Shown here: one piece after another, positions 1-13,924 of the stretch | Position numbering within the stretch: position 1 is the first letter of the stretch | Layout of the letters: every line of letters begins with the position of its first letter | Assembly: GCF_007859765.1 (NCBI RefSeq) | Contig: NZ_SIHJ01000002.1 | Coordinates: 620,001 to 684,000, forward strand | Direction of reading: 5' to 3' | DNA: 64,000 nucleotides | Source of the DNA: Posidoniimonas corsicana | Lineage (GTDB): Bacteria; Planctomycetota; Planctomycetia; Pirellulales; Lacipirellulaceae | Position numbers and translations under genes: made by a program | Notes under the pieces: generated by a model | Told to the model about the DNA's origin: nothing | Databases searched by the model: none | What the model saw: the letters and a program-made list of their open reading frames with translations, nothing else

Positions 1-1
1 G

Positions 2-220
2 GTGGGCGAGGTCGACTCGCGTGTCGTGCTAGGTTGCCCGGCGTTAGCGTCCGTTTATGTTGATCGCGTCCTGGCTACCGCGGACGTCGATCGGCTGCGC
101 GAAGACCCCGTGCGGGACGCGGTCGCCGCCGCCCTGGGCGACCATCTGGAGCTCTGCCCAAAGGTCGCCAGCAACCTCTCCCCTACCCGCGAACCCGAAG
201 AGGCCCAGACAAGTGAGTGA
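2..220 (+). CDS. C-terminal fragment of an upstream gene of the ternary-system operon
   Basis: This reading frame is open from the window edge and stops at a TGA at 218-220, so only the last 70 or so residues are visible and the true start lies outside. The GTG start of the following ATPase (213) falls inside it, an 8-base overlap that is typical of translational coupling. I see no recognisable motif in the fragment. From the overlap and the identity of the next genes I infer that it belongs to the same MoxR/vWA/propeller operon. Its function cannot be stated. Confidence 0.55.
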   Translation: MGEVDSRVVLGCPALASVYVDRVLATADVDRLREDPVRDAVAAALGDHLELCPKVASNLSPTREPEEAQTSE

Positions 221-1382
221 ATCGATTGAGCCGGACGCGCACCGGCTCGGGCACGCGCTCCGCGCCGACGTGCTCGAGCCGCTCAAGCAGAGCTTTGTCG
301 GCAAGGATGAGATCATTGACCTGCTGGGCCTCTGTCTGACCGCGCGGGAAAACCTGTTCCTCCTCGGCCCGCCCGGAACGGCGAAGAGCGCGCTGGTGCA
401 GGCGTTGGCGTCGCGGATCGACGGGCGGGTGTTCGACTACCTCCTCACCCGCTTCACCGAGCCCAACGAGATCTTCGGCCCCTTTGACATCCGCAAGCTA
501 CGCGACGGCGAGCTGCAGACCAACACCGAAGGCATGCTGCCCGAGGCGGACTTCGTGTTCCTCGACGAGCTGCTCAACGCCAACAGCGCGATCCTTAACA
601 GCCTGTTGCTGGTGCTCAACGAGCGCGTGTTCCGCAGGGGCCGCGAGACTCGGCCGCTGCCCACCCTGATGGTGGTCGGCGCCAGCAACCACCTGCCCGA
701 GGACGAGGCGCTGGGGGCCTTGTTCGACCGGTTCTTGATTCGCGTGAACTGCGTCAACGTCCCCGATGAGAGCTTGCGGGAAGTGCTGAACGCCGGTTGG
801 CGCCTCGACTCGCAATCTTCGAATCAGGAGGCGCCGACCAGCGGGCTGCGAGCAGACGATCTGCGGAGGCTGCACCGGCTGACGCCGCAGGTGTCCATCG
901 AACAGGTCCTGCCCGCGTACTGCGACCTGGTGATCAAGCTCCGCGGCGCCGGCATCCGGGTCTCGGACCGTCGGGCGGTAAAGCTCCAGCGGCTGGTCGC
1001 GGCTAGCGCCCTGCTGTGCGGCAGGCTCGACGCGAACCGCACCGACCTGTGGGTGCTCCGGTACATCTGGGACACCGAGGACGAGCAGGAGGTGCTCGCG
1101 GCGTTAGTTTCCCAAGCGGTCGACGCAGCAGACGACGAAGAACGGGCGCTTGGCCACCCCCGCTCTCAGGTCGGCGAGGCTCCCGACCCCGAGCAACTGC
1201 ACGCCGACCTGTCCGTGCTCGCCGAGATGATCGAGCGCGCCGGCGGCGTCGAACGTAGCGTTGCGAGGGATCGGCTGACGCTGCTGGCGGCCCGCTGCCA
1301 GTGGGTGCCCGACGCGCAGCAACGGACCTTCATCGAGAACCAGGTGAATGAACTATGGGCCAGGCTCGACTCAGCACCGTAG
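213..1382 (+). CDS. MoxR-family AAA+ ATPase of a MoxR-vWA-beta-propeller ternary system
   Basis: A 389-residue AAA+ ATPase. Walker A GPPGTAKS lies near residues 52-59, Walker B FVFLDE near 114-119, and a sensor-1-like VVGASN near 154-159. The segment with FTEPNEIFGPFDI and LLLVLNERVFRRG is characteristic of MoxR/RavA ATPases. The GTG at 213 is preferred because it is preceded by GAAGAGG about nine bases upstream and overlaps the previous stop. The longer frame back to 57 lies wholly inside the upstream gene. MoxR ATPases act as chaperone-like remodelling motors that work with vWA-domain partners. Here the partner is probably the vWA/propeller protein two genes downstream. The ATPase call is secure; assignment to the 'bpMoxR' ternary class rests on the gene neighbourhood. 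Confidence 0.9.
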   Translation: MSESIEPDAHRLGHALRADVLEPLKQSFVGKDEIIDLLGLCLTARENLFLLGPPGTAKSALVQALASRIDGRVFDYLLTRFTEPNEIFGPFDIRKLRDGELQTNTEGMLPEADFVFLDELLNANSAILNSLLLVLNERVFRRGRETRPLPTLMVVGASNHLPEDEALGALFDRFLIRVNCVNVPDESLREVLNAGWRLDSQSSNQEAPTSGLRADDLRRLHRLTPQVSIEQVLPAYCDLVIKLRGAGIRVSDRRAVKLQRLVAASALLCGRLDANRTDLWVLRYIWDTEDEQEVLAALVSQAVDAADDEERALGHPRSQVGEAPDPEQLHADLSVLAEMIERAGGVERSVARDRLTLLAARCQWVPDAQQRTFIENQVNELWARLDSAP

Positions 1383-2098
1383 CGTCCGGCTGGTGCGCCG
1401 AGGCGCCGCTGAGCGGTCTGGCGCGGCTCGCCACGCTCCGCGGCATCCCCGGCGTTGAGGTCAACTCCGCGTCCGACCGCCGGTTGTGGCTGCGCGGCCC
1501 TGCGCTTACGCCCATGGTTGAGCGCCGCCTGCGAGAGGTGCTCGGGTGCCGGGTCTACCAAGTCTATGCAGGCGACCAGCTGCTAGCCGTCGGCGCCGGA
1601 GTGCCGCGCGGGCACGTTCGCGACGGGGAGTGGAGACCGCTCGACGCGTGGCTCGCCCTCGCTCGACCCGCCAGCAGGTACGCCGCGCCGACGCCGGTGG
1701 CGGCTGTGTCGCTTGCGCGATCGTCGGAGGTCACAACCGCAGGCTTGGCGCTGGCGTCTCGTGCCGCGTGGGCGAAGTACGTAGAAACGGCGCCGCGGGT
1801 CCGGCTTGACCGCCTGTCCTACGCGGCCAGCGACTCGCAAGTCGTGATCGTTGGCAAGCCCCTTCCTCCGCTCCGCGCGGAGCTCTTTCATGTGCAGCAC
1901 GGCGTCGCGGCGCCGGTCGGCTACCACTGGATGCCGAGGCTCGACGCACGTGTTTTGTGTGAAGCCTGGAAGCTCAACCCAGGCGACTACCTGCTGCTAC
2001 GCCCTAGCGGCGTGCACCAGCTGGTAGCAGGCGATTGCTTTGTTGGCGCGTCGAGGTCCTCTGTCAGGCAGCTGGGGGCCCCGCATGGCGGCGAATGA
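1355..2098 (+). CDS. small partner protein of the MoxR-vWA-propeller system (bpX-like, function unknown)
   Basis: A 247-residue protein without a signal peptide or membrane segment and without a motif I can name. Its ATG at 1355 lies inside the 3' end of the ATPase gene (28-base overlap), and its own stop overlaps the start of the vWA/propeller gene, so it is fixed between the two core components. The ternary systems described by comparative genomics carry small uncharacterised domains named bpX0 to bpX6 in this position. This is probably one of them, but I cannot say which from sequence alone. Residues around 135-160 (ALASRAAWAKYVE) look helical, and the remainder is predicted mixed alpha/beta. 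The role is unknown; an adaptor between ATPase and vWA protein is speculation. Confidence 0.7.
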   Translation: MGQARLSTVASGWCAEAPLSGLARLATLRGIPGVEVNSASDRRLWLRGPALTPMVERRLREVLGCRVYQVYAGDQLLAVGAGVPRGHVRDGEWRPLDAWLALARPASRYAAPTPVAAVSLARSSEVTTAGLALASRAAWAKYVETAPRVRLDRLSYAASDSQVVIVGKPLPPLRAELFHVQHGVAAPVGYHWMPRLDARVLCEAWKLNPGDYLLLRPSGVHQLVAGDCFVGASRSSVRQLGAPHGGE

Positions 2099-4892
2099 CC
2101 AGTTCATAAGAGAGTACTTCCAGGCAGGGCGCGAGTCGTTCTGGCGGTGGGAGGACGACGGCAAGGTGATCGCCTGGGGCGACGGGAAGACCATCACGTT
2201 CCTCGAGGAGGCCACGGTCACCCTGAACCACCTGGCGCCGCACGGGCTCCCCCGCTTCGGTTCACTGCTGCTGCTCCTCGCCGCCACGCGAAAGAACTGG
2301 GCGACCGACGGCAGCGAGGCCGGCTTGTTGGCAGGCGTGGTTGACGCGGCCTTCCAAAAGAGTGATCAACGCAACGCTTCGGCTACAACGCTGCTAAGTG
2401 ACGCCCTCGCCGGACTGCACAAGGTGCGGGCGCTGGACTCGTCGCTGCGCTCGAGCCCAGAGGCGAAGGCCGCCTTGGCGGAGATCGTCTTCGCTGGCCC
2501 ACCGGCCGTTGCGAAGCCAGAGTCACAGGCCGTTGCGTCCGCCGTGCGGCCGGGGCTTACAGCTTTGCTCGATGCAGCGCTGCAGGACACCGCCTCGCTC
2601 GAAGAGCTTGGGCTCTCGCTGATGGCTGACTTGGCGGAGCTGTCCAAGGGCCTCGGGCAGGTTTCGCCTGAATCGGTGCGGCTGCGCATGGAGACCGGCC
2701 TCAACGCCCTGCCTGCGCCCGCGCCCATCGAGGCGCCGGTCGAGGAAGTCCCCCCCTGCGAGGCGGCCCGCCGGGTCATCGCTGAATTGCTCGAGCACCC
2801 CGAGTACGCCGGCGTGTCCCGCGTTGCGAGCCGGTTGCTGTCCAGCGCGTCGCTCCCGCGACGGCTGACCGACGCCCACCACCAGGAGACCGGCGGCTTC
2901 TCCGACATCACCAACCGCGGCGACCCCGACCGGCTGCTCCTCAGCGAGCTGGCCCAGGACGGGCTCACCCTAGCGGTTCGGGTGGCGATGAACGAGGCGA
3001 TGTACCTGCACCGCGAGACGCCGCCCAGCACGCCGCGAGTGCGGCGCGAATTGCTCATCGACTCGGGCGTCCGGGCATGGGGAACCCCCCGTGTGCTGGC
3101 GGCCGCCGCCGCGTTAGCCTTCGCCGCCAGCACCCCCAAGTCGGCCAGCCTGAAGGCCTGGCGGGGCGAGGGGACCGAATTGCGCGAGGTCGATCTTTCC
3201 ACGACGAGCGGCCTGGTCGCCCACCTCGGCGCCTTAGGTACGGCGCCGAACCTGTCGGAGTCGATCCCAGCGTTCGGCGATAAGGTCGACAAGGCGCAAG
3301 AATCGACTGAAGCAATCCTCATCATGCCCGCCGAGTCGTGGGGCGACGAGCAAATGAAGGCCTCGCTGCGGGCGTTGTCGGCTGACCGGGTTTACGTTGC
3401 CACCGTCAGCCGTGGGGGAGAGTTTCGACTGATCGAACGCCGGTTGCGTGGCCAGCGCACCGTGCGACTGGTGCGGGTCGACCCCAACACGCTTCTCGAA
3501 GACAGCCCCCCCCTGCACCGCCCGCGGGATGCTGACCACCTGCCCGCGATCTTCCGCGAGGGCGCGTTCCCGCTGCGGATGCCGCACCAGCTTCAGTCCG
3601 CGAGGAGCTGGTTCCTCGCGGGCTGGGGGGCCTTGGCGGTCACCAAGGACGGACGGTTGATGCGTTGGACCGAGCGTGGGCGCGGCGCCGTGCAGCTGAG
3701 CGACCAGGTTCCGCGTGGCGCCCTTTGGTGGGCCTCCCCCAACTGCCTGCAGGGGATGACGAGCTTTGTCTGCGGGACCAAGCACGACCTGCACCTGGTG
3801 CACGCCGATCTCGTTCGCCGCTCGGTCCGGTGCTTACGGATCCACCCCGCGGACGCGGCGGGGGTCGTTATGCACAACGGGGCGTTGATGGTGATTAGAG
3901 AAGGTGAGGTGCATGCCATCGGCCTGACTAGCGGTGAGAGCACCGGGTCGACCACGCTGCCACGGTACCTGGACTCCGCGCACGGCCGCTACTTCCGAAT
4001 CCCAGGCAGCGCCGGCCACATGGCGTTGTCCCACACGGGCGACGCCCCCTCCCTCGACAAGGTGACCGTCCACGAGACACTCGAAGGCGCTCCGACCCAC
4101 CGCGTCGATCTGTGGGATGTGGTAGGCGTCGACGGCCCTGTCGCCCTGAACTCATCCGGCGTTGTCTTTCGGGTCCTCGACGGAGAGATCCTCGTGCGGT
4201 GCACTCGCCACGCGCCTGCTCACATCCAGCGCCAGTCGAGTCGCGCCGAATGGAAGCTCCGCTGGACCTCGCCCGACGGTGAGTGCGTGGGCGTGTGGAG
4301 CACCAGCAATGGCGTCACACGCCGCTACCGCGTCGACCTTGAGACCAAGAGGGTCGAAGAAGACAACCCCGACGGGACCGACGGCCGGGTCGACCGGATC
4401 GCCCAGGTGCACACGTGCCGCAACCGGTTTGTCTCGATCGGGGTTGATCGTCGGGGCCGGCTGACCTTGCTGGACACAAAAAGCCGGGGCTTCATTGTGT
4501 CGGTGCGCAATAACAGCCCCTTGTTCGTCACCGAGCGGCTCGAAGACGACTTCGGCGATGCGGCAGCGTTCACCCAACTCGACGGCGCCCCGTTCCGGTT
4601 CCGCTTGTCTGAGGCCCGCTGGCCCGACGGCAGCCGAGCGGTACTAGACTCCCGCGGCCTGCTGCACCTGATGCCGGGCGACGCCTCGCTGCCCGAGGTG
4701 TCGCTGGTGCTCGCCGAGGGCGAGCTGACCGGGTGGTGCAACGCGCAGGCCGGCAGCACAGCGGCTGGCGTGTTCGGCAAGAACTACTTCCTGCCTGCCG
4801 ACGACGATCCGATGGTCCCCCGCGCGTCGAGCCGACAGGTCATGCGCGAAGCGATCACCCCGTTCGCCGAGGGGATCCGTGCCGCAACTTGA
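2085..4892 (+). CDS. vWA-like / beta-propeller protein of the ternary system
   Basis: A 935-residue cytosolic protein. The ATG at 2085 (MAANDQF) is preferred over an upstream in-frame candidate at 2040 because it follows a G-rich stretch and overlaps the previous stop by 14 bases. The N-terminal third is helical. Around residue 320 the sequence RRELLIDSGVRAWGTPR resembles the first strand and MIDAS loop of a von Willebrand A domain, with D326 kept but the DxSxS pattern eroded. A second vWA-like strand (EAILIMPAESWGD) follows. From about residue 500 the protein becomes strand-rich with recurring blades such as GWGALAVTKDGRLMRWT, typical of a beta-propeller. In the known ternary systems the MoxR ATPase is thought to act on such vWA/propeller proteins. 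The propeller call is firm; the vWA call is moderate because of the degenerate MIDAS. Confidence 0.8.
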   Translation: MAANDQFIREYFQAGRESFWRWEDDGKVIAWGDGKTITFLEEATVTLNHLAPHGLPRFGSLLLLLAATRKNWATDGSEAGLLAGVVDAAFQKSDQRNASATTLLSDALAGLHKVRALDSSLRSSPEAKAALAEIVFAGPPAVAKPESQAVASAVRPGLTALLDAALQDTASLEELGLSLMADLAELSKGLGQVSPESVRLRMETGLNALPAPAPIEAPVEEVPPCEAARRVIAELLEHPEYAGVSRVASRLLSSASLPRRLTDAHHQETGGFSDITNRGDPDRLLLSELAQDGLTLAVRVAMNEAMYLHRETPPSTPRVRRELLIDSGVRAWGTPRVLAAAAALAFAASTPKSASLKAWRGEGTELREVDLSTTSGLVAHLGALGTAPNLSESIPAFGDKVDKAQESTEAILIMPAESWGDEQMKASLRALSADRVYVATVSRGGEFRLIERRLRGQRTVRLVRVDPNTLLEDSPPLHRPRDADHLPAIFREGAFPLRMPHQLQSARSWFLAGWGALAVTKDGRLMRWTERGRGAVQLSDQVPRGALWWASPNCLQGMTSFVCGTKHDLHLVHADLVRRSVRCLRIHPADAAGVVMHNGALMVIREGEVHAIGLTSGESTGSTTLPRYLDSAHGRYFRIPGSAGHMALSHTGDAPSLDKVTVHETLEGAPTHRVDLWDVVGVDGPVALNSSGVVFRVLDGEILVRCTRHAPAHIQRQSSRAEWKLRWTSPDGECVGVWSTSNGVTRRYRVDLETKRVEEDNPDGTDGRVDRIAQVHTCRNRFVSIGVDRRGRLTLLDTKSRGFIVSVRNNSPLFVTERLEDDFGDAAAFTQLDGAPFRFRLSEARWPDGSRAVLDSRGLLHLMPGDASLPEVSLVLAEGELTGWCNAQAGSTAAGVFGKNYFLPADDDPMVPRASSRQVMREAITPFAEGIRAAT

Positions 4893-7674
4893 GATCACCA
4901 TCCGCCGCCGCGGGTCCCGCCCCCTCCCGACCTCCGCCTGGTACCTCCCGGGCGGCGACGCCAGCGACTGGCTCGCGGAGATCACGCGGTGGCCGGTCGA
5001 CCAGGCCAAGGTGCGTGTTGTGCCCATCGCCGGCGAGTCTCCGACGGCCGCCGACGGGGTGCTCGTCATCCCTGCGGACGGCGGGTTCGCGGCGAGCGCA
5101 AACTGCGTTCCTTTCGGCAGAATCGGAGAAGGCGTCTACCTGCCGGTCGACGCTGAGCTGGCGCCGCCGCCAACCGATAGCGAGCTTCAGAATCTGTTCC
5201 CCTCCGAAGGCCTGTTTGTGTTTGTGCCGGGGCGGGGTCTGACCGAGGTGGAGCCTGGGAGGGTGCTGACACTGCCCGACCTGATCGCGCCGCTCCACGT
5301 TGACGACGCCAACTGGACCTTCGCCGAACCGGGTTTCGCGTTCCCGAGCCGGATCGCCGAACTGCTGCCGCTCAACCCTCCCTCCGCTCAGAGCATCCTC
5401 GACGTCGGCCGCGACGACATCGGGCAGGATTCGGACCAGATCGCCAACCTCCCCAAAACGCCAAACGAGCCGCTGTCCGGGGCGGCGGGGGCGGTGCAAC
5501 GGGCAGCGATCGTTGCGGCGGCACTACCCCTACTGGGAATGGCGAAAGCCCTCTCGGCATTGAAGGCGGCTCTGCCAACTACCGGCGCAGGCGGCGCCGC
5601 TGGATCGGCCGGCGGTGGTTCGCTCGGCGCCCTGGGGGACTTAGCGCAGAAGATGATGCAGGGGGTGTCGCGATCCTTGCAGGCGACTAGAAACCGTGAG
5701 GTATCACGCCTGCTGAACATGCTGCAAGACAACCCCGATGAGGGACTCCGGTACGCCATCCCCTTCGGCGGCGACGCCCACCGGGGTATCGGCGCCGCCG
5801 GCGGCAGCCTTGGCAGGCGAGACGTCAACTTCAGTCTCGGCGGGCTGGGTGGAGGCGGCCCCGCGGACGTGTGGGAGCTCTCCTACGAGCACCAGCAGCA
5901 GCTCATCCAGCGGTACCGCGATCTGGCCGACCGAGAGATGCGTCTGGGACGTTTCCGGCGTGCCGCCTACATCTTCGCGCAGCTGCTAGGCGACTTCCGC
6001 TCCGCCGCCTCAGCACTAGAGCGGGGCAAACACTTCCGCGAGGCGGCTGTGCTCTACAGCGAACAGCTGCGCAACCCAAAGGCTGCAGCAGAGTGCCTGG
6101 AACGCGGTGAGCTGTGGAACGAAGCAATCGAGGCCTACCGAGAGCTGGGCCACCACGAGAAGGTTGGCGACCTGCTCGCGCACATCGATCGGTTGGAGGA
6201 GGCCCGCCAGGCCTACCACGCGGCGGCGGACGAGTTGCGTGACAAGCACGACCTGGTCGGGGCAGCGCGGCTGTACGTCGAGAAACTGTGCGACGCCGAC
6301 CTGGCCCTCAGCGTGCTCGACGACGGCTGGCCCCACACCAGCCATTCCGCTCGGTGCGTTAAGGCCGGCTTCGGCATCCGTGCGCGGCTTGGCCGCCACG
6401 AGGAGTCCGCGTCGCGGATCGACTTCCTGTTCGAGCAGGCGTCCGCCCTGGGTAGGCACGCCGAGGTCGCTGAATTGCTGGCCGACGCCTGCACCCAATA
6501 CCCAGAAGCAGCCGTGCAACAGCATGCCATGGGCCGTGCAGGGGCCATCGTAGTCACTCGATTACAGTTCTCCGGCGCCGATGAGGCCCGCCGGCTGACC
6601 CGGGTCTACACGCGGCTGCACCCGGAAGACACACTCCTGCCACGGGACGTTCAACGATTCCACGGTCAGGTGCCTCCGGCGGCGGCGCCGGCCCAGCCAC
6701 CACAGCGGCCTCGCCCTCGCGACAACAAGCTAACACTCCTCAGCCAGTTCGAGCTGCCGTGCGATGCCTCCTGGCGCGCCGCGACGATCGCTGGCGACCA
6801 ACTCATCGTGGCCGGGGTCGCCGACGGACGGATCGTGCTATCGCAGAGCGACCTCGACGGACGCAACGCGAGGACCACCCGTCCGTGGAGCGGAGTCCCC
6901 ACACGCTCGGATGCGTTGCTGCTCCTGCATGGATCCGACCACCAAGTGCACCTCATTGCGGTTGGTGAGCCGCCGCTGACGCCCGTGCCGGCGATTGAGT
7001 TCAACGATAACGGTCGCGTCGTCGCCGACGTCGGGACTCCGCGAGGCGTCGGCCTAGTGTGGGGATCGGCCGCGGGCACGCTTGGTCAAACCTGGACCAT
7101 TGAGGATCGTGATGACCCGGTGGTGGTCTGTGTCGACCGCGACGGGGTCGTCGTTTCGTCCCAGTCACTGCTGCAGTCGGCCGACCTGCCTTGGGACGAG
7201 GTCGCCACTCCGGTCCCGATGTGCGCCACCAGCAGGCGGTTGGTCCTGGGCATTGGCGCCAGTCTGGCAAGCGTGCAGGGCGGCCAGGTAGACACGATCG
7301 AGGAGTTTCCTACTCGCATCACCGCCATGGCCGGCGGCGGGCCCTACGCGGCCCAACAGGTGTGCGTGTCGCTGGAGTCGGGCGCCGCTCTTGTGAGGGT
7401 AGGTTTCGCCGGTCACGTAACTTCGTTCGCCGAGGGCATGGACCACCCGCTGACGCTGATCATCCGAGGCGGGTTCGTGGTCGCCGCCGACGACAGCCGC
7501 GTCGCGGTGTGGCAGCCACGCGGGCGGCAGGACGAGCGACGTTGGCTCGCCCCGCTGGGCGATCAGCGTTACCAGCACGGGCGGCCAGCCGCCCTCCTTG
7601 CGCTGCCCGCCACGGATCAGTTCGCTGTCGTCTCGGAAAGCGGCGTCGTGTCCCACTTCGAAGTAAATACTTGA
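4879..7674 (+). CDS. TPR-like repeat / beta-propeller protein of the ternary system (possibly bpX6-type)
   Basis: A 931-residue protein starting at GTG 4879, with GAGGGGAT just upstream, overlapping the previous gene by 14 bases. The first 200 residues form a mixed domain with no familiar motif, possibly the family called bpX6 (numbering from memory). A Gly/Ala-rich hinge follows (about residues 230-330). Then comes a helical repeat array of TPR/SEL1 character (about 335-590), with units such as GRFRRAAYIFAQLLGDF, KHFREAAVLYSEQL and ELWNEAIEAYRELG. A Pro-rich linker near residue 600 leads to a C-terminal beta-propeller-like half with repeated short strands. There is no signal peptide, so it should be cytosolic. 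The architecture suggests a scaffold or sensor that binds protein partners, and the second propeller in the operon fits a multi-subunit conflict system. Confidence 0.8.
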   Translation: MPQLEITIRRRGSRPLPTSAWYLPGGDASDWLAEITRWPVDQAKVRVVPIAGESPTAADGVLVIPADGGFAASANCVPFGRIGEGVYLPVDAELAPPPTDSELQNLFPSEGLFVFVPGRGLTEVEPGRVLTLPDLIAPLHVDDANWTFAEPGFAFPSRIAELLPLNPPSAQSILDVGRDDIGQDSDQIANLPKTPNEPLSGAAGAVQRAAIVAAALPLLGMAKALSALKAALPTTGAGGAAGSAGGGSLGALGDLAQKMMQGVSRSLQATRNREVSRLLNMLQDNPDEGLRYAIPFGGDAHRGIGAAGGSLGRRDVNFSLGGLGGGGPADVWELSYEHQQQLIQRYRDLADREMRLGRFRRAAYIFAQLLGDFRSAASALERGKHFREAAVLYSEQLRNPKAAAECLERGELWNEAIEAYRELGHHEKVGDLLAHIDRLEEARQAYHAAADELRDKHDLVGAARLYVEKLCDADLALSVLDDGWPHTSHSARCVKAGFGIRARLGRHEESASRIDFLFEQASALGRHAEVAELLADACTQYPEAAVQQHAMGRAGAIVVTRLQFSGADEARRLTRVYTRLHPEDTLLPRDVQRFHGQVPPAAAPAQPPQRPRPRDNKLTLLSQFELPCDASWRAATIAGDQLIVAGVADGRIVLSQSDLDGRNARTTRPWSGVPTRSDALLLLHGSDHQVHLIAVGEPPLTPVPAIEFNDNGRVVADVGTPRGVGLVWGSAAGTLGQTWTIEDRDDPVVVCVDRDGVVVSSQSLLQSADLPWDEVATPVPMCATSRRLVLGIGASLASVQGGQVDTIEEFPTRITAMAGGGPYAAQQVCVSLESGAALVRVGFAGHVTSFAEGMDHPLTLIIRGGFVVAADDSRVAVWQPRGRQDERRWLAPLGDQRYQHGRPAALLALPATDQFAVVSESGVVSHFEVNT

Positions 7675-7738
7675 CACCTACTGCGCAGGGCTTGATACTC
7701 GGCGGCGTCGCTCGAAACTCTTCGACCAAGGAACGGCA

Positions 7739-9517
7739 GTGGCGTCCGGCGATCCCCAACAAGCTCTGCAGCTGGCGGAAGAGTACTTCTCTGCGGAGGA
7801 CGATCGATTCCTGAACGCGCTCCGCGACGTGACGGACGCCGAGCTGATTGCCCCGCTTGCCGACGCGTGGAAGGTCGACCCACGACCCTGGGCTCACGAA
7901 CAGAAGCTGCTATTTTTCCGCCTTGATCCCGACCGCGTGGGGCACCAGCCAATCGTCAAACGCCTGTTCAAACAGGCCGAAGAGGATGGCGACGACCAAG
8001 TGCTGGCCGCCGCCGCGTCGCTGTTCGATCGGTTGGTGCGTCACCGAGTGAGCACGCGCAACTGCTACGACTGGCGGAGCCGTGCATTCTGGACCGAGGA
8101 GTACCTCGAGGCCGAGTGCGGCAAGCTCCCCAACACCGCGGCCCGGACAAGAGAGGGGATCAACCCGTTTACCGGCCAGCCGGTGACCTTCCACCTCCCC
8201 CCGCCACCCGTGGACGCGATCTACTTCTCGTACGCAACCCGCTACTACCTGCAGCGGCGGGCGTGGCGTTACTACAAGCGGCTCGCAAGGCAGGGCGCCG
8301 AGCGTTACCTCACCGCCTGCCGTGAGCTGCTCCTCGCCTACACCGACGACGACCTCGACACCGGCCCGCGGATACTCGACAGCCGCACGCTGCTGCAAGC
8401 CGCGTTCGGCGAGCACCCCGCGCTGCGGTTTGGACGCGACCGCGTCACGCTCGCCGAAGGCGGCAGCCTGTCGCAGTTGACCGCGGCGCCCCGGCGCCCA
8501 GAGCACTGGCAGGCACCGGCCGCGTTCGACGTGCTCATAGACCTAGCCCGGCGCTCGCGTAGCCGACTGGTGCGTGTCTGGGCGATGCAGCTCACCGAGC
8601 GACACCACGCCGAGCGTGTCGCGAACCTGCCAGTCGAAGTGCTGCTGGAGCTCATTCTCAGCGAGGACCCCGACGTCCAGCGGTTCGCCGAGACGCTGCT
8701 CGAAGACAACCCGGCTATCGATCGGCTGCCCATCGAAACCTGGCTGCGGCTGATCGACGAGGCGGGCCCCAACGCCTTGCCCGCCATCTGTACAGCGATG
8801 AGCGAACGCGGAACGACCCGCGACCTCAACCTCTCAGAGTGCGTCGATCTGGCGGTGCGCGAGCCGTCCGCCGCCGCCAGGCTTGGCCTCAATGAACTCA
8901 AGACCAGAATCCCGGCCTCGGAATACGAACTCGACCAGGTCGCGCGCCTCGCGGACACCGCGTGCGACGCCTTGGCGGGGGAAGCAGCCGACTGGGCATT
9001 AAGCTACGTCGGGTCGCGGCAAGAGTACGACCGCGACCACGTCTCAAGGTTCTTCGACAGCCTCAGGCCCGCAGCTCGGCGCAGCGCGTGGGCGTGGCTC
9101 GAATCCGACGACTGCCCCGGGCGCGACGACCCGGTGCTGTTCTGCCGCCTGCTGGAAACGCCGTACGACGAGCTGAAGCTGCGGGTGATCGACCTGCTCG
9201 AGCAGCGGAACCTGCCGGGCGAGGCCCGCGGCGGGTTGACCGCGGTGTGGACCGCCGTGCTGCTGGGCGTCCACCGCGGTGGCCGCCAGAAACTCGCCGC
9301 CGTCCGTCAGCTCGCGGCGGCCCTAAGGCAGTCGCCCCAGCGGGCGGACGACCTTGTGCCGGTGCTGGCGGTTGCGGCGCGGTCCATCCGCAAGCCGGAG
9401 TCGCGCGCCGCCCTCGCGGCGGTGGTAGGCTCGACGCTCGCCGAACCGGCTCTGGCGGACGCGGTCCAGCGACTACTCCCCGAACTGCGGATCGTCCCCG
9501 CGGAGGCGACCGCATGA
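7739..9517 (+). CDS. HEAT-like helical repeat protein of the ternary system
   Basis: A 592-residue, almost all-helical protein. The GTG start at 7739 is preceded by AAGGAACGGC, a good ribosome binding site, 64 bases after the previous stop. Its first third holds a conserved-looking aromatic segment (RAFWTEEYLEAECGKLPNT, then INPFTGQPVTFHLP). From about residue 250 it becomes a series of paired helices of HEAT/Armadillo type (VLIDLARRSRSRLVRVWAMQ, ELILSEDPDVQRFAETLLED). The stop shares an ATGA overlap with the SWIM gene, so the two are translationally coupled. No catalytic motif was seen. I infer a structural or substrate-binding subunit of the preceding complex; HEAT/SWIM neighbours of this type also occur outside ternary systems. 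Confidence 0.75.
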   Translation: MASGDPQQALQLAEEYFSAEDDRFLNALRDVTDAELIAPLADAWKVDPRPWAHEQKLLFFRLDPDRVGHQPIVKRLFKQAEEDGDDQVLAAAASLFDRLVRHRVSTRNCYDWRSRAFWTEEYLEAECGKLPNTAARTREGINPFTGQPVTFHLPPPPVDAIYFSYATRYYLQRRAWRYYKRLARQGAERYLTACRELLLAYTDDDLDTGPRILDSRTLLQAAFGEHPALRFGRDRVTLAEGGSLSQLTAAPRRPEHWQAPAAFDVLIDLARRSRSRLVRVWAMQLTERHHAERVANLPVEVLLELILSEDPDVQRFAETLLEDNPAIDRLPIETWLRLIDEAGPNALPAICTAMSERGTTRDLNLSECVDLAVREPSAAARLGLNELKTRIPASEYELDQVARLADTACDALAGEAADWALSYVGSRQEYDRDHVSRFFDSLRPAARRSAWAWLESDDCPGRDDPVLFCRLLETPYDELKLRVIDLLEQRNLPGEARGGLTAVWTAVLLGVHRGGRQKLAAVRQLAAALRQSPQRADDLVPVLAVAARSIRKPESRAALAAVVGSTLAEPALADAVQRLLPELRIVPAEATA

Positions 9518-11220
9518 GCATCGCCGTCGCCTACCACGGACGCAGCGTCCTGAGCCGCCCGGCCGGCGGCGCGCAGGCGCTCCGCCTGGCGCCCAACCTC
9601 AACCGCGAGGCGGTTGCGTTCGACGCAGCGCTGCGTCACCCCATTAGGTTCCGCGAAGCCGTTTCCGCCCTGCACGACATCGTCATCAACGACCTCCGCT
9701 ACAAGCCGCGAGACCGCGAGGCCTACGAAGCCTGGCGGCGGGAGCAGCGCCGACGCGAGATGCAGGTCAGGGCCACCGCCTTCCAGCAGGCCCGTCAGGA
9801 AGCGCTCGCCGCCAACAACAGCCTGTCGCCCGAATTCGAGGCCGAGTTCAACCAGAAGCGGAGCCGCTACTGGCGGGCGCGGACACAATTCACCCAACGT
9901 CTGATGACCCGCGATCGCGAGATGTGGCGGATGCTGATGCCGCTCGACCCCGTGGTGACGGTCGCCCCGGACGTGGCGTTCTTCGAGTGCTTCTCGGCGG
10001 ATCAGAGCAGCTACGGCTGCCTGACGCTCGACCGCGACGACGCGCTCGGCGCCAGCGCCCAAACGCAACTCGGCACGACCAACGTCGACTATTCGTGGGC
10101 CCTGTACGACCACTTTCAGACACTCCGCAGCTACCGCGAGACGCGGTTGAAGGTCGACCCGGAGGGCTTCGAATCCACGACCGCGGGCGGCGGCGAGCGG
10201 CGGGAAGAGAAGATCGACCTCCCCGACGGATGGCTGCGTGGCTTTATGCAGGTCCAGGCGGCGATGACGCTGCCGATGCGGCGGGTCACGTTGTCCCGTG
10301 ACGCGGTCTACTCGCTGCTCGCCTGGCTGCGGCGCCACAAGGCGCGGACGAGCCCCCGAGCGATGCGGTTCGAGCTCTCGCCGGGCCGCCCGCCAGTCAT
10401 TGCATTGGAGCCCTGGGAAGAGCGGATCACCTCGCACGCGGGCCCCTACGAGGGACGCGCAACCGAACCAGTCCGCATCTGGGGCGTGCGGCGATTGCTG
10501 TCGCTGGCGCGGGTGCTGCCGCTGGCCGAGGCGTTTGACGTCTACCTCCTGGGGACCGGGCTGCCGAGCTTCTGGGTCGCGCGGATGGGCGAGATGCGGC
10601 TGACGCTTGGCCTGAGCGGCTGGACCGCCAACGAGTGGAGCGGGGGGTCGTCGCTCGACCTGCTCGCCCCCCCTGGGGAGGCGAAGCAACACCGGCTGGA
10701 GTCGGCTGTGTCCGCCTTGCAGCGGGAGCGGGCGTTGTCGTTCGACGCGCTGCGGGCCGCCATGCTCTGCGACCCGGGCGACTGCGCCGCGACGCTCAAT
10801 CAGCTTGCCCTCGCGGGCCAGGTGATCCACGACCTGCAGGCCGGCGTGTTCCGCTGGCGGCAGGTGATGGACATGCCGCTCGGCGCAGCGGAGCTAGGCG
10901 AGGCATCACAAGAGGCGACCGAGTCGAAACTCTTGCTACGTGCAGGAGAGGTTGAGCTGGTCAGCCGTACTCCGAGTCAAGACGGGGCGGAGGTGCTGAT
11001 CGGCAAGCACCGTCGAACCGAGTTGGAGCTGGTCATCGATCGCGACGGCGTGGTACGACGGGGCAAGTGCTCGTGCAGCCACCACCATCGCGGCGGGGTC
11101 CGTCGCGGGCCATGCCGTCACCTGCTAGCATTGCGTAGCCTAGCGATGACGAGGCACTCGTCAGAAGATGCCTCAACGACACAATGGTACAACCGCCTAG
11201 TCAACTGGTCAGACAACTAA
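9514..11220 (+). CDS. SWIM zinc-finger protein, last gene of the ternary operon
   Basis: A 568-residue protein starting at ATG 9514 in an ATGA overlap with the previous stop. The open frame extends far upstream to 8962 but that part lies inside the HEAT gene and is not used. The C-terminal segment CSCSHHHRGGVRRGPCRHLL gives a SWIM zinc-binding pattern CxCx12CxH (C519, C521, C534, H536), a fold usually involved in nucleic-acid or protein binding. The preceding 500 residues are mostly helical, with a basic region near residues 65-85 (RDREAYEAWRREQRRREMQ). No membrane segment or export signal is present. SWIM proteins recur next to MoxR/vWA systems, so it is probably the nucleic-acid or target-recognition component. 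The SWIM motif is directly visible; the role is inferred. Confidence 0.82.
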   Translation: MSIAVAYHGRSVLSRPAGGAQALRLAPNLNREAVAFDAALRHPIRFREAVSALHDIVINDLRYKPRDREAYEAWRREQRRREMQVRATAFQQARQEALAANNSLSPEFEAEFNQKRSRYWRARTQFTQRLMTRDREMWRMLMPLDPVVTVAPDVAFFECFSADQSSYGCLTLDRDDALGASAQTQLGTTNVDYSWALYDHFQTLRSYRETRLKVDPEGFESTTAGGGERREEKIDLPDGWLRGFMQVQAAMTLPMRRVTLSRDAVYSLLAWLRRHKARTSPRAMRFELSPGRPPVIALEPWEERITSHAGPYEGRATEPVRIWGVRRLLSLARVLPLAEAFDVYLLGTGLPSFWVARMGEMRLTLGLSGWTANEWSGGSSLDLLAPPGEAKQHRLESAVSALQRERALSFDALRAAMLCDPGDCAATLNQLALAGQVIHDLQAGVFRWRQVMDMPLGAAELGEASQEATESKLLLRAGEVELVSRTPSQDGAEVLIGKHRRTELELVIDRDGVVRRGKCSCSHHHRGGVRRGPCRHLLALRSLAMTRHSSEDASTTQWYNRLVNWSDN

Positions 11221-11240
11221 ACAGCACATTCAATCCAAAC

Positions 11241-11460
11241 GGTGGGGCGCGACCGGCTTTCCAAGACTTTTCTGCGGCGATACGCCGCGGGTGAGATTGG
11301 TAACCATTGCTTCCCCAAGGCCGTTGTTCGTTAGCCGGCAACGTTACCCCGTGCGCCGGCCAAGACGAGCCACAGCTCACCGGCGAACGGGGTAACGTTG
11401 CCGGCCTGAGTGAACGACCTTGGTCCGCAGCCGTGAAGTTGGGAAGCCGGCCGCCCCGCC
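11241..11460 (+). ncRNA. candidate retron msr-msd non-coding RNA
   Basis: The gap between the SWIM gene and the reverse transcriptase folds like a retron RNA. Arm a1 (GGTGGGGCG at 11241-11249 and CCGGCTT at 11253-11259) pairs with arm a2 (AAGCCGG at 11444-11450 and CGCCCCGCC at 11452-11460), with one G-U pair. After a1 is a short hairpin (GCGGCG 11274-11279 with CGCCGC 11283-11288), a plausible msr stem. Then comes a very long hairpin: CCAAGG 11315-11320 with CCTTGG 11418-11423, TTGTTC with GAACGA, a perfect 19-base-pair stem 11334-11352 with 11387-11405, and six more pairs (11354-11359 with 11380-11385) closing a 20-base loop. This is the probable msd, reverse transcribed into msDNA. I could not identify the branching guanosine. 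Confidence 0.78.
11315..11423 (+). repeat. long imperfect inverted repeat (msd-like hairpin)
   Basis: The core is a perfect 19-base inverted repeat (11334-11352 and 11387-11405), extended inward by 6 pairs and outward by two 6-base helices across small internal loops. There is no T-tract after it, so it is not an ordinary terminator. Its placement between paired arms, upstream of a retron-type RT, makes it the best candidate for the reverse-transcribed part of the retron RNA. Confidence 0.85.
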
Positions 11461-11498
11461 ACTTTCATCGTCAACGCCCGTAGGGGCGCCTTGCATCT

Positions 11499-13100
11499 AT
11501 GGGCATGTTCGACTGGCTATCGGGTCTCTTCGGCCGGGCATCGTCGGGACGACCCACCGCGCCCGCCGCCGGCGCCGCCAGCCCAGCCCCGCCGCCCGTC
11601 AGATCCTCGGCGCCCGAACAACAACCGCGTCCGAGGCAGAGCGGCCCAAAGCGGCTCGAGGGGTTGGACGCCAGCCAGTTCGCCCCGCTCGAGATCGACG
11701 ACGCCCGTGGGCAGGCCAAGCGGCTCAGCCGCTCGTTCGGCCGACTCGTGTGGGGAAACCGGACCGACCGGATCCCCCCGGCCAACGACGCCCGCACGCT
11801 GCTGATCGACCGCATGATGGTCGCCGAGGGGCTGGTCACGCCCGAGGAGCTGGCGGACATCCACCGCGTCGGCGCCGAGATGGACCGGCTGCGGCCCGAC
11901 TACGACGCCGCGCACCGCGCCGGCGCCAAGGCCGCCGAGCAGGCGGCCGCCAGCAGCCGCCAGGAACGCGAACAACGCAAGGCGGAGAAGAAAGCGGCCG
12001 CCGCCGAACGCAAGCGTGAGCGTGCCGAACAGATCGCGGAACGCCGCCGCTCGGACATCGTGTTCTTGGGTAGGGGCGTGTCCCGCGGGCTGGCCGATCG
12101 CCAGTCCTACCCCGACCTGCTCGGCTCGTTCGGCCTGCCGGTCATGGCCACGCCCGCCGACGTGGTTAAAGCGATGGGGTTCCTGGACATCGCCGAACTG
12201 CGCTGGCTTGCGTTCCACACTGAAGCGGCCACGCGGACCCACTACGTGCAGTTCACCACGCGCAAGAAGAGCGGCGGCGTACGCGTACTGGCCTCCCCGC
12301 ACCAGAAGCTCCGCCGCGCCCAGGGTTGGGTGCTGGAGAACATCATCGCGAAGATCCGGGTAGATGACGCCGCGCACGGCTTCGTCGCCGGCCGCAGCAC
12401 GGTCAGCAACGCGACGCCCCACGTCGGTCAGCAGGTGGTGGTGAATGCTGACCTGAAGGACTTCTTCCCATCGATCACCTTTTACCGCGTGGAGGGTTTC
12501 TTCCGCCGACTAGGCTACTCGGGCGCCGTGGCGACGATCTTGGCGTTGCTCACAACCGAGTGCCCACGGCAGCAGGTAACCTACGCCGGACAGACACTGT
12601 GGGTCGCCACCGGGCCCCGCTGCCTGCCCCAGGGCGCATGCACCAGCCCAGGCCTGTCGAACGCGATCGCATGGAAGCTCGACCGCCGGCTCGGCGGGAT
12701 GGCGCGGGGCCTCGGCTGGACGTACACCCGCTACGCCGACGACGTAACCTTCTCGGCGTCGGGAGAGCCTGCCGCGAAGGTTGGCTGGCTACTCGCCCGC
12801 CTCAGACACCTCGCCCAAGAAGAAGGCTTCGAGCTCAACCACAAGAAGACCCGGGTGCAACGCCAGAACGCCCAGCAATCGGTAACCGGGCTGGTGGTGA
12901 ACGACCGCGTGGGCGTCTCGCGAAAAACAGTCCGACGGCTACGGGCCATCCTGCACAACGCGAAGCAAACGGGACTAGAGGCCCAGAACCGAGACAACCA
13001 CCCCAACTTCACCGGCTGGGTGCAGGGGATGATCGCCTACGTCGCGATGGCCAACGCAGAACAGGGCGCCAGCCTCCAGGCGGCGTTCGACGAACTCTAG
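11499..13100 (+). CDS. retron-type reverse transcriptase with long N-terminal extension
   Basis: A 533-residue RNA-directed DNA polymerase. The palm motif YADDVTFS (Y412-D415) holds the catalytic aspartates, and DLKDFFPSI supplies the first catalytic Asp. Retron-specific marks are present: NATPH (N304-H308) fits the NAxxH motif of region X, and VTG (462-464) followed by LVVN fits region Y, which recognises the msr stem. PQGACTSPGLSNAI is the usual motif 4. The first 200 residues are an extension: a Pro/Ala-rich tail, then a conserved-looking helical part (about 65-130) and a highly charged coiled-coil-like stretch (about 135-185). Myxobacterial retron RTs are also extended at the N terminus. 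The gene follows the candidate msr-msd by 38 bases. It should make branched msDNA; no toxin-like effector gene is adjacent. Confidence 0.92.
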   Translation: MGMFDWLSGLFGRASSGRPTAPAAGAASPAPPPVRSSAPEQQPRPRQSGPKRLEGLDASQFAPLEIDDARGQAKRLSRSFGRLVWGNRTDRIPPANDARTLLIDRMMVAEGLVTPEELADIHRVGAEMDRLRPDYDAAHRAGAKAAEQAAASSRQEREQRKAEKKAAAAERKRERAEQIAERRRSDIVFLGRGVSRGLADRQSYPDLLGSFGLPVMATPADVVKAMGFLDIAELRWLAFHTEAATRTHYVQFTTRKKSGGVRVLASPHQKLRRAQGWVLENIIAKIRVDDAAHGFVAGRSTVSNATPHVGQQVVVNADLKDFFPSITFYRVEGFFRRLGYSGAVATILALLTTECPRQQVTYAGQTLWVATGPRCLPQGACTSPGLSNAIAWKLDRRLGGMARGLGWTYTRYADDVTFSASGEPAAKVGWLLARLRHLAQEEGFELNHKKTRVQRQNAQQSVTGLVVNDRVGVSRKTVRRLRAILHNAKQTGLEAQNRDNHPNFTGWVQGMIAYVAMANAEQGASLQAAFDEL

Positions 13101-13402
13101 CCGCACATCTGGCGCGACGCCGGGTAGAGTTCGATCCACCGGTCGGGGTGGAAGCGGACCAGCCGTAGGCTCTCGAGTTCCTCGGCGCGACGTTCCACGA
13201 GCCCGAGCGCTTCGTCGAGTTGCTCGGCAAGCTGATCAACCGTCACCGATGCGCCCGCGGAGTCGCACGAGTGCAGGTGGCGGAGGATGTCGCCGCGAAG
13301 TGATGACCAGCGCTGCCAGGCGCCGGCCGGCCTGGGGCTGAACCGCGGGCGTGAATCTACCGGCAGATTGACAGTTTGACCGGATCGTTGCTCTTCCGAC
13401 AT
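13097..13402 (-). CDS. small winged-helix-like protein convergent to the retron RT
   Basis: A 101-residue protein whose stop codon overlaps that of the RT by three bases, tail to tail. The start at 13402 (MSEEQ) is chosen over an ATG five codons upstream because AGGAG lies seven bases before it. Residues about 40-90 (RGDILRHLHSC, VTVDQLAEQLDEA, VERRAEELESLRLVRF) have the pattern of a winged helix-turn-helix, with two helices, a recognition helix and a short wing ending in WIELYP. It could regulate the neighbouring island, but no operator is evident. It could also be an unrelated housekeeping regulator. Confidence that it is a real gene is moderate to good; the DNA-binding call is inference. 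Confidence 0.65.
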   Translation of the reverse strand: MSEEQRSGQTVNLPVDSRPRFSPRPAGAWQRWSSLRGDILRHLHSCDSAGASVTVDQLAEQLDEALGLVERRAEELESLRLVRFHPDRWIELYPASRQMCG

Positions 13403-13460
13403 CGCATCGCTCCTCATGCGTGGTTAACGGCACTGGATATCCCACAACGGGTTGGCCCGG

Positions 13461-13601
13461 CTACCGTCTGCCGCGTCTTGCGAGGGGATCGCCTCCGGTC
13501 AACGAGCGATTCCTGGCAAGACCTGTGATAGTGTACACCCGACCACCACCAACGCAAGGGGCAATGGCACCTTTGGTGACATATTGAATCCTCCGCGACA
13601 T
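13461..13601 (-). CDS. possible 46-residue small protein
   Basis: A short frame starting with MSRRIQYVTKG, with AGGAACGGGAG directly before its ATG at 13601, which is a strong-looking ribosome binding site. The product is basic and ends in RRGRR. No family is recognised and no neighbour overlaps it. It may be a small peptide gene upstream of the winged-helix gene on the same strand, or simply a chance frame in GC-rich DNA. Confidence 0.22.
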   Translation of the reverse strand: MSRRIQYVTKGAIAPCVGGGRVYTITGLARNRSLTGGDPLARRGRR

Positions 13602-13924
13602 CTCCCGTTCCTCACAAACTGCGCGTCTTAGCACAGCGCGTCGGCAAGGCTTCATTGGGGCCGTCTGATCGTTCCCAGGAGAGAGTCATAAAGGCGGCTG
13701 GCTGCTGCGTCGGGCCCCCTAGTTCTCCGGTCGACCGAGAGACGCCGAGTGGAACTGCTCGCGCCGTTGGAGACAATGAGCCCTTCTGCGCAAAACGGAG
13801 TGGCGGGGAACATTTGCCGCCGGTGGGTGTGCATTAGAATAAGGCCCTGGCAGGCGGAGCGAGGCCCGTGCCATGCGCGGCCGGGTAAGCAGGCATTGCT
13901 CGCGGTTGGAGGAGAGGAACCGTC
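13602..13924. other. intergenic stretch without a supported gene
   Basis: I see no supported gene in this gap. Two roughly 60-codon frames on opposite strands (around 13652-13837) mirror each other and lack ribosome binding sites. The right end carries a GGAGGAGAGG motif that serves as the ribosome binding site for the next gene, so its promoter probably lies within about 100 bases upstream. Confidence 0.5.

What the first reader, a model, noticed from the sequence alone, without database searches (positions are those of the whole stretch)
1..11220. Overlapping MoxR-vWA-propeller ternary operon with HEAT and SWIM subunits
The sequence shows six overlapping or tightly spaced plus-strand genes (plus an incoming fragment): MoxR ATPase, small unknown protein, vWA-like/propeller, TPR-like/propeller, HEAT-like and SWIM. 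The first three and the propeller partner match the ternary conflict systems reported from comparative genomics; their molecular function is not experimentally known. This is a complete-looking, clearly coupled example, with a SWIM zinc finger as a possible nucleic-acid-binding component.
Basis: partly seen in the sequence, partly recalled or inferred. Interest (0 to 1): 0.75.

Follow-up and report, generated by a model that had tools for sequence, protein, structure and literature searches.

The report
MoxR-propeller system joined to a retron
Behind a known but unexplained bacterial conflict operon (a MoxR motor with vWA/propeller proteins) lies a complete retron, with a reverse transcriptase, a template RNA and two helper proteins, one of which is predicted to fold like the PCNA DNA clamp; the two systems travel together as one block in several bacteria, which suggests that they work together against phages.

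Summary
The genes are real and the first four are correctly recognised: with an incoming bpX4 gene they form a complete MoxR-vWA-beta-propeller (bpX) ternary system. The HEAT and SWIM genes are not shown to be subunits of it; they are accessory genes of a type XIII retron. The retron half has its own promoter-like site, conserved in relatives, so a single operon is not shown.

The eight-gene block (about 13.6 kb) is kept intact in three other Lacipirellulaceae genomes, in unrelated surroundings, and partly on a fifth contig. Linkage of retron and bpX genes arose at least twice more: in a verrucomicrobial genome (retron followed by bpX4-bpMoxR), and in another planctomycete family, where 7 of 13 bpX loci have a XIII-like retron divergent from bpX4, with its own covarying RNA and no HEAT or SWIM. 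Elsewhere the two co-reside unlinked, so coupling is optional.

The SWIM protein is predicted to contain a PCNA/9-1-1 sliding-clamp fold (Z 18.6), undetected by sequence. Modules: near certain. Functional coupling: plausible, untested. I found neither point in the papers I could search; the main retron survey was not readable.

The parts
1..220 (+). 3' end of bpX4 gene (gene starts about 440 bases upstream of the window; L002:13489/13561-14220)
   Evidence: Pfam PF19920 bpX4, 4.2e-47
213..1382 (+). bpMoxR AAA+ ATPase (GTG start at 213 overlapping the bpX4 stop; longest ORF opens at 57); P-loop GPPGTAKS
   Evidence: Pfam PF20030 bpMoxR 9e-98; start; nearest solved relative RavA, 5e-40
1355..2098 (+). 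bpX2 protein
   Evidence: Pfam PF19918, 2.3e-45
2085..4892 (+). vWA/beta-propeller component (bpX0 at N end, bpX1 at C end)
   Evidence: Pfam PF19915 3.4e-17, PF19917 1.1e-12; start from alignment
4879..7674 (+). bpX3 / TPR / propeller component
   Evidence: Pfam PF19919 1e-27, weak TPR
7671..7699 (+). sigma70-like promoter TTGACA-17-GATACT of the retron half
   Evidence: 10 of 12 matches, only hit in 7400-14000; conserved in G397, G426, G480 (11, 9, 10 of 12) and visible in L107
7739..9517 (+). HEAT/ARM accessory protein of the type XIII retron
   Evidence: PADLOC PDLC02922 HEAT-ARM_XIII 8.3e-170
9514..11220 (+). SWIM accessory protein: PCNA-like core (aa 35-371, predicted), helix-turn-helix-like stretch (about aa 392-450), SWIM zinc finger (CxC...CxH, aa 519-536)
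   Evidence: PADLOC PDLC02972 SWIM_XIII 1.6e-181; AlphaFold model and fold comparison
11240..11462 (+). msr-msd-like retron RNA: a1/a2 pairing 11240-11265 with 11435-11462, msr hairpin near 11271-11291, long msd hairpin about 11315-11423
   Evidence: (z -8.5), covariation; profile hits in other type XIII loci
11499..13100 (+). type XIII retron reverse transcriptase (NATPH, YADD and VTG motifs)
   Evidence: PADLOC PDLC02956 RT_XIII 1.4e-154; best solved relatives are retron RTs, Ec86 5e-42

Best explanation
The locus is two conflict modules inherited as one block: a beta-propeller (bpX) MoxR-vWA ternary system and, directly behind it with its own promoter, a complete type XIII retron (HEAT, SWIM, msr-msd RNA, RT). 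Most likely they act together. Steps with their standing: (1) shown by sequence: all parts are present, intact and co-conserved. (2) Inferred from retron biology: the RT copies the msd hairpin into msDNA, and the RT-RNA-DNA complex holds its accessory proteins in an inactive state. (3) Inferred from the predicted fold: the SWIM protein is a PCNA-like clamp with a zinc finger that engages DNA or replication partners, with HEAT as scaffold. (4) Inferred: phage replication or its nucleases disturb the msDNA or the clamp and release the complex. (5) Inferred from MoxR-vWA pairs: the ternary system is the ATP-driven remodeller that loads, activates or disassembles the retron complex, giving a thresholded, probably abortive, response. 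In the family without HEAT and SWIM the ternary system would itself be the retron's partner.
For: Module identity. RNA with covariation in composite loci. Intact block in three other Lacipirellulaceae genomes and, in part, on a fifth contig, with no shared flanking genes, although the upstream DUF58/BatA operon is colinear in G480 and G412 without the block behind it. Linkage in at least two further lineages: L138 retron then bpX4-bpMoxR, and family f28 with divergent XIII-like RT plus RNA in 7 of 13 bpX loci; the RT tree separates the three. PCNA-like fold of SWIM.
Against: Linkage is not obligatory: about a dozen genomes hold both systems far apart, most type XIII loci lack bpX, G412 lies within the composite bpX clade but has no retron beside it, and L107 has two foreign ORFs between the halves. 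The retron half has its own promoter. L138 has only bpX4 and bpMoxR. Defence genes cluster in islands anyway. No experiment exists; the clamp fold rests on one model.
Confidence: 0.55

Rival explanations
1. Two separate defence systems that happen to sit side by side, as in a defence island, each working alone.
For: Separate promoter-like site before HEAT; both systems exist alone in many genomes; two unrelated ORFs inserted at the junction in L107; G412 has the ternary system alone.
Against: The block is kept in four genomes at 41-77% protein identity in different surroundings, junction gap always 64-97 bp in the four uninterrupted copies, and linkage recurs in two other lineages in other arrangements. 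No other defence system was seen sharing the block.
Confidence: 0.38
2. One reading: one six-gene ternary operon in which HEAT and SWIM are subunits of the MoxR-vWA-propeller complex.
For: Same strand, tight spacing; SWIM relatives of a more distant kind also occur in other multi-gene operons.
Against: HEAT and SWIM go with RT and RNA in about 70 loci without bpX; bpX loci elsewhere lack them; promoter between the halves.
Confidence: 0.05
3. The reverse transcriptase is a diversity-generating element, as in the VMAP ternary systems, not a retron.
For: Kaur et al. report DGRs with VMAP ternary systems.
Against: RT matches RT_XIII and other retron RTs, not DGR models; retron motifs NAxxH and VTG; msr-msd-like RNA. 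Template/variable repeat pairs were not searched for.
Confidence: 0.02

Closest known systems
MoxR-vWA beta-propeller ternary systems (Kaur et al. 2020, PMC7159879, subsystem 4)
   Same: bpX4, bpMoxR with GxxxTAKS P-loop, bpX2, vWA/propeller with bpX0 and bpX1, bpX3/TPR/propeller, in that order
   Different: Kaur et al. say these systems 'show no conventional effector modules' and mention reverse transcriptases only as DGRs of VMAP systems; here a retron follows, and in another family a retron is divergent from it
Type XIII retrons (PADLOC-DB RT_XIII, HEAT-ARM_XIII, SWIM_XIII; classification of Mestre et al. 2020, not readable here)
   Same: HEAT-SWIM-RNA-RT order, all three protein families at E below 1e-150, structured RNA in the SWIM-RT gap
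   Different: Joined to a bpX ternary system; SWIM recognised as PCNA-like by predicted fold
PCNA / 9-1-1 sliding clamps
   Same: Two-domain fold, Z 18.6, rmsd 2.8 over 232 residues
   Different: No sequence similarity detected; helical insertion in domain 1, extra helix-turn-helix-like stretch and SWIM finger; ring formation unknown
SWIM + DUF6493/DUF7824/DUF7825 gene pairs in other planctomycetes (L249, L250)
   Same: SWIM protein related to SWIM_XIII (about 1e-50) next to a large partner protein
   Different: No retron RT matched there

Membership tests
beta-propeller MoxR-vWA ternary system | bpMoxR ATPase with the GxxxTAKS P-loop | tested here: met
   PF20030 9e-98; GPPGTAKS in the sequence
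beta-propeller MoxR-vWA ternary system | vWA component carrying a beta-propeller | tested here: inconclusive
   Flanking bpX0 and bpX1 domains matched, but no Pfam vWA hit; model of low confidence (pLDDT 52), whose Foldseek matches are propellers such as TolB with poor superposition
beta-propeller MoxR-vWA ternary system | third component with variable N end, TPR and propeller | tested here: met
   bpX3 1e-27 and weak TPR; the propeller part was not modelled
beta-propeller MoxR-vWA ternary system | linked bpX2 and bpX4 genes | tested here: met
type XIII retron | RT of the XIII clade with NAxxH, YxDD and VTG motifs | tested here: met
   RT_XIII 1.4e-154; motifs; tree
type XIII retron | HEAT/ARM and SWIM accessory genes | tested here: met
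   8.3e-170 and 1.6e-181
type XIII retron | msr-msd RNA with a1/a2 repeats | tested here: met
   fold z -8.5; covariation 14 pairs with double changes, 0 of 500 shuffles; homologous RNA in other XIII loci. No Rfam retron family matched
type XIII retron | production of branched msDNA | not testable with these tools
   needs RNA/DNA extraction
sliding clamp (PCNA) fold, SWIM protein | two-domain clamp fold | tested here: met
   predicted model only: pLDDT 75.8, pTM 0.71; Foldseek 1.6e-10; VIA Z 18.6
sliding clamp (PCNA) fold, SWIM protein | ring assembly and encircling of DNA | not testable with these tools
   needs biochemistry or a complex structure
diversity-generating retroelement | template and variable repeats with DGR-type RT | not tested
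   RT is of retron type; repeats not searched

The most novel reading that the evidence does not exclude
bpX ternary systems are the ATP-driven partners of a group of retrons: a retron class in which a MoxR-vWA-propeller machine, with or without a PCNA-like SWIM clamp and a HEAT scaffold, is the sensor-effector. This would supply the missing output for bpX systems and a clamp-based, replication-watching mechanism for type XIII retrons.
Probability: 0.4. Interest if true: 0.88.

Novelty: new variant of a known kind. Interest (0 to 1): 0.72.

Why it matters
Two bacterial conflict systems without a known mechanism, bpX ternary systems and type XIII retrons, explain each other's gaps if they are coupled: the first lacks a recognisable effector, the second lacks a known sensor and effector. 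The linkage gives a directly testable genetic prediction, and a culturable species carries the block (Aeoliella straminimaris ICT_H6.2, L106). A PCNA-like clamp as a retron accessory protein would be a new way to watch DNA replication during infection.

Tried and rejected
HEAT and SWIM as ternary subunits: rejected from gene neighbourhoods. DGR: rejected on RT class. Rfam gave no retron family, only chance hairpin matches on the other strand. The RT N-terminal motif MGxFDWL looked specific to bpX-linked retrons (15 of 94 RTs) but a wider look showed similar short hydrophobic starts in most HEAT-SWIM type XIII RTs, so no bpX-specific claim is made. Outgroup phage RTs had very long branches in the RT tree, so only the separation of the three bpX-linked groups is used, not the rooting. 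The vWA/propeller model was too poor to use. Other Verrucomicrobia/Phycisphaerae bpX loci (L243-L247) have no retron next to them. Kaur et al. text has no mention of retron linkage for propeller systems. Paper searches for retron with MoxR, with sliding clamp or SWIM, and SWIM with PCNA found nothing relevant. Mestre et al. 2020 is not held, so prior notice there cannot be excluded.
Full report
WHERE AND WHAT. The window is contig C2:620001-684000 of a 6.77 Mb genome. The six genes of the finding exist. The incoming fragment is bpX4 (PF19920, 4e-47). Genes 1-4 match bpMoxR, bpX2, bpX0+bpX1 and bpX3: with bpX4, the full gene set of the beta-propeller MoxR-vWA ternary system (Kaur et al. 2020, PMC7159879).

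HEAT and SWIM match the PADLOC families HEAT-ARM_XIII (8e-170) and SWIM_XIII (2e-181), and the next gene, 11499-13100, matches RT_XIII (1e-154); its closest solved relatives are retron RTs. It carries NATPH, YADD and VTG. The 278-base gap between SWIM and RT folds far better than shuffles (z -8.5) into a retron-like msr-msd RNA with a1/a2 pairing, a short hairpin and a long hairpin. Across four genomes the flanks are conserved in letters and the long stem in pairing: 14 pairs with double changes, against a mean of 5.7 in shuffles, 0 of 500 as high. A profile of this RNA finds relatives in many other type XIII loci, and 34 of 43 measured SWIM-RT gaps have fold z below -3 (20 shuffles each). This is a complete type XIII retron, by sequence.

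ONE BLOCK, TWO TRANSCRIPTION UNITS? A sigma70-like site lies between bpX3 and HEAT (7671-7699). The same site is found at the same place in G397, G426 and G480 and before HEAT in L107, after two inserted ORFs (the L107 site was read by eye from the printed sequence). So a single operon is not supported, though read-through is possible.

IS THE LINKAGE REAL? In an even sample of 392 genomes of the phylum, SWIM_XIII rings in 32 (about 22 strongly) and bpX2 in 28. Outside f1 and f28, genomes with both hold them on different contigs or far apart (for example G381 by about 520 kb, G537 by about 230 kb, G396 by about 63 kb). In f1, all four genomes with strong SWIM_XIII (G000, G397, G426, G480; three genera) have the whole bpX set directly upstream, same order and strand, with identities to the window from about 41% (bpX2) to 77% (MoxR) and 57-68% for HEAT, SWIM and RT. 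A fifth contig, L107, shows bpX2-vWA-bpX3, two unknown ORFs, HEAT, SWIM and the start of the RNA. The flanking genes of the four blocks are unrelated (the few hits are edge genes of the block itself, a MoxR/DUF58 paralogue and short repeat matches). The eight-gene operon in front of the block in the window is colinear in G480 and G412, but there the block is elsewhere (G480) or the bpX genes are elsewhere and without retron (G412). So the block is kept together while its surroundings change.

INDEPENDENT RECURRENCE. L138, a verrucomicrobial MAG, has HEAT, two small genes, SWIM, RT_XIII (2e-154), then bpX4 (8e-33) abutting the RT stop and bpMoxR, then housekeeping genes. Its SWIM-RT gap also folds into the RNA shape. 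In family f28, seven of thirteen bpX loci (L214, L215, L217, L218, L222, L225, L226) have a XIII-like RT divergent from bpX4 (RT_XIII is the best PADLOC family for the two scanned, 3e-85 and 3e-59 on truncated frames). Just 5' of these RTs lies an RNA with a1/a2 pairing and a long stem whose sequence differs completely between genomes but stays paired: 19 pairs with double changes, mean of shuffles 11.1, covariation score 0.444 against 0.173, 0 of 500. No SWIM_XIII was found in these genomes. In the RT tree the composite RTs form one clade (99), L138 sits among verrucomicrobial type XIII RTs (95), and f28 is a separate clade (100) outside the HEAT-SWIM group (quick tree, SH-aLRT only, rooting unsure). 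So linkage arose at least three times. Trees of three bpX proteins put G527 (ternary alone) outside and G412 (ternary alone) inside the composite clade: the retron was most simply gained once in this family and lost from G412's locus.

THE SWIM PROTEIN. An AlphaFold model from 22 sequences (pLDDT 75.8, pTM 0.71) matches PCNA and 9-1-1 clamps throughout the top 50 (Foldseek down to 1.6e-10; VIA Z 18.6, rmsd 2.8, 232 of 245 residues, model residues 36-371). The order of elements (beta-alpha-beta4-alpha-beta3, twice) fits the two PCNA domains, with a helical insertion at about 61-143. Sequence searches of solved structures do not find PCNA. This is one model; ring assembly is untested. In two type XIII members the zinc ligands are replaced (L043, L045), so the zinc may be dispensable there.

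MECHANISM. Shown: parts, order, conservation, RNA covariation, recurrent linkage. From established knowledge (my own, not tested here): retron RTs make msDNA, and RT-msDNA complexes restrain toxic partners until infection; MoxR-vWA pairs remodel protein complexes. Inferred: the clamp-like SWIM protein and HEAT scaffold sit on or near msDNA and respond to phage DNA replication, and the ternary machine remodels that complex. The weakest link is functional coupling of the two halves; the main rival is side-by-side defence systems.

WHAT IS NEW. Both families are known. New here, as far as I could search: the recurrent linkage, the XIII-like retron with a ternary system and no HEAT/SWIM, and the clamp fold. 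No held paper links retrons to MoxR systems or to sliding clamps. The defining survey (Mestre et al. 2020) could not be read.

Noticed in passing
L125:13709-15316, L155:13799-16257, also L117, L158, L167: Several other type XIII retrons carry a WGR-PARP gene, and some a Macro-domain gene, directly behind the RT on the same strand (6 and 4 of 80 loci by clustering; one PARP and one Macro protein confirmed by Pfam): possibly another interchangeable partner module based on ADP-ribosylation.
   Followed up: partly
L117:350-850, L115:11763-12243, L155:9724-9952, L167:3288-3494: RNA profile hits occur in tandem pairs in L117 and L115; in the loci with PARP the RNA lies between HEAT and SWIM instead of between SWIM and RT.
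   Followed up: partly
N termini of type XIII RTs, window 11499-11535: A short hydrophobic start (MGxFDWLxxLFG or similar) followed by a long variable linker recurs in HEAT-SWIM type XIII RTs and in all f28 RTs; it resembles a docking or membrane-contact peptide.
   Followed up: partly
G000:C1:557712-558734 (L263): The same genome has a second RT related to RT_XIII (6e-98), not near bpX genes.
   Followed up: no
L249:9566-13925, L250:9076-13637: More distant SWIM relatives are paired with a DUF6493-DUF7824-DUF7825 protein of about 1000 residues, without a retron: perhaps a parallel clamp-like SWIM system.
   Followed up: partly
L107:6235-7605: Two ORFs (301 and 154 aa) without Pfam or PADLOC match are inserted between the ternary and retron halves, upstream of the retron promoter.
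   Followed up: partly
L138:9129-9988: A DUF6036 nucleotidyltransferase gene and a small gene, possibly a toxin-antitoxin pair, lie between HEAT and SWIM.
   Followed up: no
L002:2040-12382 (just upstream of the window): An ordinary MoxR-DUF58-BatA type operon precedes the block; it is a separate, conserved operon and should not be taken for part of the ternary system.
   Followed up: yes
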